Origin: a virus
Length of the DNA stretch: 24,219 bases
Direction: 5' to 3' (one strand)
IMG/VR virus record: IMGVR_UViG_3300022871_000110
Span: 1 to 24,219 of that record
Below are positions 13,401-14,221 of the stretch, piece by piece. The position numbers and the translations under genes are program-made. The notes under the pieces were generated by a model. The model was not told the DNA's origin. It did no database searches and saw only the letters and a program-made list of their open reading frames with translations. Every line of letters starts with the position of its first letter. Within the stretch, counting starts at the first letter, position 1.

Positions 13401-13541
13401 TTTTTTTTGTTCAATTAAGTCTAATGCCTTTGCTATGTTAGATAAGCCTTTCTTGCGCAACCACGTACTTGTGTTCATGTTTTTACGAGCATCCATTTTA
13501 ATGCCATATTCCTTTTCAATATCACGTATCTTCATTTTCAT
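13380..13541 (-). CDS. Small protein with possible HTH, 53 aa
   Basis: This gene is bounded by junction repeats on both sides and its stop (TAG) lies inside copy 1. The protein reads MKMKIRDIEKEYGIKMDARK, then NTSTWLRKKGLSNIAKALD. The spacing of helices could form a small helix-turn-helix, but this is not certain. Two in-frame ATG codons (13541 and 13535) are possible starts. Function unknown. Confidence 0.6.
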   Translation of the reverse strand: MKMKIRDIEKEYGIKMDARKNMNTSTWLRKKGLSNIAKALDLIEQKKPNSKLT

Positions 13542-13564
13542 ATTACTAAGTTAATTTACTATTT
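13541..13564 (-). repeat. Junction repeat, copy 2
   Basis: Core ACTAAGTTAATTTACTATTT. It starts immediately after the 3' end of the 219-nt tRNA-like element and ends at the ATG of the 53-aa gene. Confidence 0.8.
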
Positions 13565-13783
13565 GGTGAGAGCGAGGATTTGCACCTCGCATGCAGACAG
13601 TTGGCACGTATGCGCCCTGTCCTACTCTATGCAAGTAGTATCCACTAAATTTTCTCAGCAATGATTATTTGCAACTAATCATCTCAAAAAGTTAGCTTCA
13701 ACGCCACACTCTATTGCTCTCGTGTATCTTCGGGACTTGTATCTGCACCGAAGCCTTTGCGTCTACTATTCCGCCACCTCACC
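13565..13783 (-). ncRNA. 219-nt tRNA-Leu-like RNA with long insert
   Basis: The minus strand begins GGTGAGG-TG-GCG, then GAATAGTAGA-CGC, the acceptor, linker and D-arm of a tRNA-Leu. It ends with a T-arm-like hairpin (GCGAGG-TGCAAAT-CCTCGC) and TCTCACC, which pairs with the first seven bases (one G-U). Instead of a normal anticodon and variable arm there are about 140 nt with further hairpins (plus coordinates): 13728-13753 (6 bp), 13661-13682 (7 bp), 13622-13638 (5 bp), 13596-13621 (5 bp plus inner 5 bp). A G-U pair in the inner stem exists only if the minus strand is transcribed. No group I intron core was recognised and no anticodon stem could be assigned. It could be an intron-bearing or decayed tRNA, or a new RNA built on a tRNA frame. 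Confidence 0.5.
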
Positions 13784-13822: not shown

Positions 13823-14221
13823 TTAGTCATGGTCTATTGCGTTAAATTCTTTATAGAAATATTCTTTCTGATGTTCTTCATTGAAATATTGTGCGGCTAG
13901 GTCAAAGAGCCTCTTACATACTTCTATATGGCTTCGCCACTTCCTTCCACCACAGATATGTATATATCCTTCTTCGCCAAAGTAAACATGAGAACATCCA
14001 TCCCATTTTATTGTTCCGTCCATATAGGTTTCGGCATCCCCTAACTTTTTGGTAGTATCTACAGAGCTATCAACGCCTTTCTTTTCGTATATCGGAATAT
14101 TAAATTTCCCAAAAAAGTTTTGTTCGTGCCCAACAATTTCATAGACCCAAAAATTCATAAATGTATCACCGTATTCAATTAGACAAATAAAGTCCATGTC
14201 TTCCCAAGTTATTTTCTTCAT
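13823..14221 (-). CDS. Hypothetical protein, 132 aa
   Basis: A soluble, aromatic-rich protein: WEDMDFICLIEYGDTFMNFW, then a middle with GCSHVYFGEEGYIHICGG and a basic CKRLFDLAAQYF helix. Several Cys (about residues 13, 76, 90, 102) are scattered and do not form a clear knuckle. Its ATGAAGA start directly follows junction repeat copy 3. No family recognised. Confidence 0.6.
   Translation of the reverse strand: MKKITWEDMDFICLIEYGDTFMNFWVYEIVGHEQNFFGKFNIPIYEKKGVDSSVDTTKKLGDAETYMDGTIKWDGCSHVYFGEEGYIHICGGRKWRSHIEVCKRLFDLAAQYFNEEHQKEYFYKEFNAIDHD

What the first reader, a model, noticed from the sequence alone, without database searches (positions are those of the whole stretch)
13565..13783. A 219-nt RNA framed like tRNA-Leu but with about 140 nt of extra hairpins
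The minus strand opens with a tRNA-Leu 5' half (acceptor, linker, D-arm) and closes with a T-arm and a 3' strand that pairs back with 7 bp, yet the middle is three times too long. No group I core or anticodon stem could be placed. A G-U pair in one inner stem supports minus-strand transcription. It may be a tRNA with an undescribed intron, a relic, or a new RNA class on a tRNA scaffold.
Basis: partly seen in the sequence, partly recalled or inferred. Interest (0 to 1): 0.75.

Follow-up and report, generated by a model that had tools for sequence, protein, structure and literature searches.

The report
tRNA-like phage RNA with swappable insert
The 219-nt RNA belongs to an apparently undescribed family found in many phages and some plasmids of Gram-positive bacteria: all keep the outer frame of a leucine tRNA but carry, in place of the decoding part, a swappable insert that differs from phage to phage.

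Summary
No anticodon arm, group I core or single excision that gives a tRNA exists, and ARAGORN and Rfam find nothing. The decisive step was finding relatives. Short blastn hits led to 24 further members in Listeria, Enterococcus, Brochothrix, Lactobacillus, Leuconostoc, Paenibacillus and Bacillus SPP1 phages and in Enterococcus and Weissella plasmids, mostly unannotated. All share a 7-bp acceptor stem, U8-G9, a tRNA-Leu D arm, a 6-bp T stem with loop UGYAAAU (G55) abutting the acceptor (13 bp in all) and usually A73. The frame covaries strongly (11 of 16 pairs changed on both sides, 98.9% of cells paired, 0/500 shuffles). Between D arm and T arm lies a body of 0-232 nt, mostly unrelated between members. 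Phages with 95-100% identical flanks carry unrelated bodies, and phages with unrelated flanks carry 100% identical bodies: the frame is a slot for an exchangeable body. So this is neither an intron-bearing tRNA nor a relic but a functional tRNA-mimic class, often in phage RNA islands. What the body does is unknown; a host-directed payload or decoy on a tRNA chassis is most likely. I found no description of the class, but the literature search was limited.

The parts
13565..13783 (-). whole tRNA-framed RNA (219 nt)
13777..13783 (-). acceptor stem, 5' strand GGTGAGG
   Evidence: pairs with 13565-13571; this helix covaries in relatives
13775..13776 (-). U8-G9, invariant in all members
13759..13774 (-). 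tRNA-Leu-like D arm GCG-GAATAGTAGA-CGC (one G in the loop instead of GG)
13591..13758 (-). variable body replacing anticodon and variable arms; most stable hairpins at 13728-13753, 13660-13683 and 13596-13621
   Evidence: folding; no similar body among relatives
13572..13590 (-). T arm: 6-bp stem GCGAGG/CCTCGC and loop UGCAAAU (G55)
13565..13571 (-). acceptor stem, 3' strand TCTCACC, directly abutting the T stem
13564..13564 (-). discriminator A73 (A in 22 of 25 members); no CCA encoded
13537..13563 (-). copy of the intergenic repeat AAATAGTAAATTAACTTAGTAATAT that bounds cassettes in this region
13823..14221 (-). upstream ORF (132 aa, phrog_33479, unknown function), replaced together with the RNA in L008

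Best explanation
The 219-nt RNA is a member of a widespread phage and plasmid RNA class: a tRNA mimic made of the top half of a tRNA-Leu (7-bp acceptor, D arm, 6-bp T stem with UGCAAAU loop, A73) that frames an exchangeable body. Shown here: the common frame and its covariation, the hypervariable body, and the exchange of bodies in both directions (same flanks with different body; different flanks with same body). Inferred: the frame folds into the tRNA elbow, so that host tRNA enzymes trim its 5' end (RNase P) and finish its 3' end (CCA addition), which stabilises the RNA and gives access to tRNA-binding proteins. It cannot decode, because it has no anticodon arm in most members and G55 in all; the 13-bp acceptor/T helix is also non-standard. 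The body is the payload, most likely a decoy or binding element aimed at host RNA biology or at RNA-targeting defences, renewed by recombination in the constant D-arm and T-arm sequences as hosts change.
For: Twenty-five members with the same frame; 23 frames aligned: 98.9% of cells paired, 82 cells changed on both sides against 21.4 in shuffles, 11 of 16 pairs with double changes, 0/500 shuffles reach the covariation score, and sliding the partners destroys it. Random expectation 0 in 20 Mb. Body exchange: BtpYZU01 and BtpYZU02 have 97-100% identical flanks but bodies of 133 and 32 nt without similarity; EFDG1 and 21C1 have 95-99% identical flanks but unrelated bodies; phiFL2A is an empty 51-nt frame in flanks 97-99% identical to VEsP-1 (152-nt body). 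ADU4 and BtpYZU01, and EFDG1 and VEsP-1, have unrelated flanks but bodies 100% identical over 130 and 150 nt. Members sit near tRNAs, tmRNA and ROOL or between an ArpU-type regulator and the next late genes. E. coli tRNA-Leu lacking the anticodon and variable arms is still leucylated, depending on A73 and the D/T-loop contacts (PMC9976931), so charging of such a frame is possible. In the phage itself the RNA+ORF132 unit is swapped for an RNA ligase+ORF130 unit in a 99.99% identical relative.
Against: No expression, processing or binding data. Bodies have weak folding signals (mean z -0.7 over 23 members), so a structured payload is not proven. G55 breaks the normal G18:U55 contact, which is reported as important for leucylation. 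The window's phage contributes only one distinct sequence, its host is unknown, and its link to the Gram-positive members rests on the frame alone. The decoy role is inference.
Confidence: 0.6

Rival explanations
1. The body is itself the selfish part: a small mobile cassette that spreads by recombining or inserting into tRNA-like frames, which act only as landing slot and processing signals; no benefit to the phage.
For: Identical bodies in unrelated phages and empty 51-nt frames.
Against: Acceptor stems stay perfectly paired in loaded and empty frames; no shared ends, repeats or coding capacity seen among bodies; many unrelated bodies rather than a few spreading ones.
Confidence: 0.17
2. A leucylated, tmRNA-like RNA: LeuRS charges the frame and the leucine or the charged RNA has a role in translation rescue or peptide transfer.
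For: tRNA-Leu D arm, A73 in 22 of 25, U8, C56 (in nearly all) and A58 kept; arm-less tRNA-Leu can be charged; one member directly follows a tmRNA.
Against: G55 in all members; bodies unrelated, without a common reading frame; 13-bp acceptor/T helix.
Confidence: 0.1
3. A decayed tRNA-Leu gene (relic).
For: No anticodon arm; non-canonical T loop; known from one distinct sequence in uncultured phages; the 89-nt PSA member looks nearly like a tRNA.
Against: Frame helices maintained by compensatory change in 23 sequences; the same G55 and 6-bp T stem everywhere, which decay would not give.
Confidence: 0.04
4. A tRNA-Leu gene with an undescribed intron, spliced to a working tRNA.
For: tRNA ends with an internal insert; insert-free or short variants exist (phiFL2A 51 nt, PSA 89 nt).
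Against: No excision gives an anticodon arm or an ARAGORN tRNA; empty frames lack an anticodon arm; no group I match in Rfam.
Confidence: 0.03

Closest known systems
tmRNA (Rfam RF00023)
   Same: tRNA-like domain closing a non-tRNA body; acceptor and T arm kept, anticodon arm replaced
   Different: tmRNA is Ala-like with G3-U70 and a tag ORF and pseudoknots in a conserved body; here the frame is Leu-like, has a 6-bp T stem and G55, and the bodies are unrelated and exchangeable
tRNA-Leu
   Same: U8-G9, D arm GGCGGAATAGGTAGACGC, A73
   Different: no anticodon arm in most members, 6-bp T stem, UGCAAAU loop, body of 0-232 nt
Pseudo-tRNAs such as tRNA-Other of Bacillus cereus and non-proteinogenic tRNA-Gly of Staphylococcus (PMC3399842, PMC4052509)
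   Same: tRNA-like RNAs kept out of translation
   Different: those keep an anticodon arm and normal length; no variable body
Bacterial Y RNA YrlA (RF02553)
   Same: tRNA mimic, also known from phages (own knowledge)
   Different: no Rfam match for this RNA at any useful score; a Ro-binding module was not seen
ROOL and GOLLD RNAs
   Same: phage RNAs of RNA islands near tRNAs (PMC12286853); ROOL lies about 1 kb from two members in phage ADU4
   Different: much larger, conserved bodies, no tRNA frame

Membership tests
canonical tRNA-Leu | acceptor, D arm, T arm | tested here: met
   (T stem 6 bp instead of 5)
canonical tRNA-Leu | 5-bp anticodon arm with U33 and Leu anticodon | tested here: not met
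canonical tRNA-Leu | T loop UUCRANY | tested here: not met
   UGCAAAU
tRNA with group I or other intron | excision restores a tRNA | tested here: not met
tmRNA | match to the tmRNA model / G3-U70 | tested here: not met
   pair 3-70 is U-A
YrlA | match to RF02553 | tested here: not met
tRNA-framed exchangeable-body RNA (class described here) | 7-bp acceptor abutting a 6-bp T stem with UGYAAAU loop | tested here: met
tRNA-framed exchangeable-body RNA (class described here) | TG + [GA]YGGARYA(G)GTAGACRC 3' of the acceptor | tested here: met
tRNA-framed exchangeable-body RNA (class described here) | body swapped in a constant frame | tested here: inconclusive
   shown for Brochothrix and Enterococcus members; for the window only the larger RNA+ORF unit is seen swapped
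tRNA-framed exchangeable-body RNA (class described here) | expressed and trimmed RNA | not testable with these tools
   needs RNA-seq or northern blot

The most novel reading that the evidence does not exclude
A general phage and plasmid RNA 'slot': a covarying tRNA-mimic frame that hosts interchangeable RNA payloads acting on host RNA biology or defence, i.e. a combinatorial RNA counterpart of protein anti-defence loci.
Probability: 0.35. Interest if true: 0.93.

Novelty: categorically new. Interest (0 to 1): 0.85.

Why it matters
It defines an RNA class in model phages (SPP1, Listeria PSA, Enterococcus EFDG1) and in E. faecalis plasmids, with no match in Rfam and mostly without annotation, and shows a fixed tRNA-like frame used as a slot for exchangeable RNA bodies. 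That makes a function testable at once in culturable systems and may explain what some unannotated stretches of phage RNA islands encode. It also warns that tRNA finders miss such RNAs because of G55 and the 6-bp T stem.

Tried and rejected
Rfam at gathering and permissive thresholds: nothing. Four pattern scans of IMG/VR found only identical copies, because they fixed the start of the body, an exact body stretch or a spacing of 140-172 nt; genome contigs pattern: two chance matches. The first phage BLAST gave only E = 1-4 hits that I at first took for ordinary tRNA-Leu D arms; reading the sequences showed they were relatives. Relatives of the phage by terminase lack the RNA. Intron test negative. 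Enrichment of TGCA in the RNA (5 copies, p = 0.015) was not pursued. AlphaFold of the neighbouring ORF132 gave a poor model (pLDDT 58). The smaller tRNA-like RNAs of this window (61 and 60 nt) do not fit the class signature.

Full report
What is there. On the minus strand 13783-13565 lies a 219-nt RNA gene with the ends and D arm of a tRNA-Leu: GGTGAGG-TG-GCGGAATAGTAGACGC at the 5' side, GCGAGG-TGCAAAT-CCTCGC-TCTCACC-A at the 3' side. It occupies an intergenic gap in an operon of small minus-strand genes. ARAGORN with and without introns and Rfam find nothing. The frame is not chance: the same search returns nothing in 4 Mb of random sequence, and a stricter signature written to fit the other members returns nothing in 20 Mb.

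Not an intron-bearing tRNA. I tried every single excision between D arm and T arm. None leaves a 17-nt anticodon arm with U33, and none is accepted by ARAGORN, even when the T loop is made canonical for the detector only; shuffled inserts give several acceptances by chance.

Context in the phage. The window is a 24-kb fragment of an uncultured phage. In IMG/VR the RNA is known only as identical copies. A 43.7-kb relative that is otherwise 99.99-100% identical replaces the RNA and the upstream ORF132 by an RNA ligase (PF09414) and another ORF, and a contig with a different terminase shares the RNA up to the intergenic repeat that follows it. The RNA therefore sits in a region of cassettes bounded by short repeats.

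Relatives. Weak blastn hits in isolate phages turned out, on reading the DNA, to have the same architecture. Searches with the constant parts and retrieval of the loci gave 24 further members: Brochothrix phages ADU4 (two), BtpYZU01, BtpYZU02; Lactobacillus phages 8014-B2, Bacchae, Lpa804, Lenus, phiJL-1; Listeria phages PSA, B025, LP-114, LP-101; Enterococcus phages 21C1, EFP01, VEsP-1, EFDG1, phiFL2A, Efs 1-1-1; Paenibacillus phage Pd_22F; Leuconostoc phage Ln-9; Bacillus phage SPP1; plasmids of E. faecalis and Weissella. Some are crossed by small hypothetical ORFs; none is annotated as an RNA in the regions I read. The counts of further hits suggest that many more exist; I retrieved only these.

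The frame. In the aligned members the order is: 7-bp acceptor, UG, D arm [GA]YG-GA..GTA.A-CRN, body, 6-bp T stem, loop UGYAAAU, acceptor 3' strand without a gap, then A in 22 of 25. Counting pairs on 23 frames: 98.9% of cells are standard pairs; 11 of 16 pairs show changes on both sides; 82 double-changed cells against 21.4 +/- 3.6 in shuffles; covariation score 0.657 against 0.202, reached by 0 of 500 shuffles; sliding the partners by 1-3 columns drops pairing to 28-51%. Relatedness inflates such numbers, but the changes occur between phages of different families and hosts. The acceptor sequence goes with the host genus (Listeria ATACTCG in four phages; Enterococcus phages GTCACTG; L. plantarum phages GTGCTTG), while the body does not.

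The body. Its length runs from 0 (51-nt frames of phiFL2A and Efs 1-1-1) to 232 nt. Apart from three clusters of identical or near-identical bodies, no two are similar. Flank comparison shows exchange both ways: BtpYZU01/BtpYZU02 share flanks (97-100%) but not bodies; phiFL2A/VEsP-1 share flanks (97-99%), one with an empty frame, one with 152 nt; EFDG1/21C1 share flanks (95-99%) but not bodies; conversely ADU4/BtpYZU01 and EFDG1/VEsP-1 have unrelated flanks but 100% identical bodies over 130 and 150 nt. In about a dozen members the widest helix of the body ends two (in one case one) nt before the T stem, where a class II tRNA has its variable arm; in PSA that place is an ordinary variable arm, preceded by an anticodon-like arm TATGG-ATGAGTC-CTATA. 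I infer descent from a tRNA-Leu whose variable arm grew into the body and whose anticodon arm was lost in most members. Folding energies of the bodies are only slightly better than shuffles (mean z -0.7), so their structures are not established, including the hairpins in this window (z -2.6).

Where members live. In Herelleviridae they lie beside tRNAs, a tmRNA and, in ADU4, ROOL and drum RNA; in temperate phages between an ArpU or similar regulator and the next late genes; in SPP1 between genes 9 and 11; in an E. faecalis plasmid after a surface-exclusion gene. The window fits this picture: its phage carries two more small tRNA-like RNAs, a structured RNA and a large conserved RNA nearby.

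How it most likely works. Shown: conserved, covarying tRNA-like frame; exchangeable body. Inferred: processing by tRNA enzymes, exclusion from decoding, and a payload role of the body. Published work shows that E. coli tRNA-Leu without anticodon and variable arms can be leucylated if A73 and D/T-loop contacts are kept (PMC9976931), and that pseudo-tRNAs can act outside translation (PMC3399842, PMC4052509); both make such a chassis plausible, but neither proves it here. The diversity and exchange of bodies resemble loci under an arms race, hence my preference for a host-directed payload or decoy (about 0.35 for that specific role, about 0.9 for the RNA class itself).

Novelty. No Rfam 15 family matches these RNAs and ten full-text searches found no description, but the library is partial, so prior description cannot be excluded.

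Noticed in passing
window 20600-19440 (minus): Large ORF-poor region conserved in the whole phage family; the core 20205-20005 has 18 of 45 pairs with compensatory change in five phages, folding z -5, no Rfam match. A probable large ornate RNA in the style of ROOL or GOLLD.
   Followed up: partly
window 15290-15115 (minus): About 180-nt strongly folded RNA (z -5.7) with the motif GCAGAGGAAACGACCC twice; homologue in L029 3690-3480 with a consistent fold.
   Followed up: partly
window 15085-15025 and 15005-14946 (minus): Two further tRNA-like RNAs of 61 and 60 nt: perfect acceptor and T arms, no D arm or anticodon arm; the 60-nt one also has G55 (TGCAATT).
   Followed up: partly
window 13371, 13537, 14225, 14686, 14916: Intergenic repeat ATATTACTAAGTTAAWTT at cassette borders; cassette exchange in L008 and L003 occurs at it.
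   Followed up: partly
L008 1822-2920: RNA ligase (PF09414) plus a 130-aa ORF occupy the place of ORF132 and the 219-nt RNA in an otherwise identical phage.
   Followed up: partly
window 18060-17896 and 16020-15810 (minus): Strong hairpins just upstream of GAGAGGA ribosome-binding sites (z -5.6 and -4.3); perhaps mRNA leader stabilisers.
   Followed up: no
L035 9858-9931: tRNA-like gene with an 8-nt anticodon loop (ARAGORN 'tRNA-???'), next to the large RNA in a related phage.
   Followed up: no
L055 2295 and 2495: Phage ADU4 carries two members of the class in tandem, 122 and 184 nt, downstream of ROOL and drum RNAs.
   Followed up: partly
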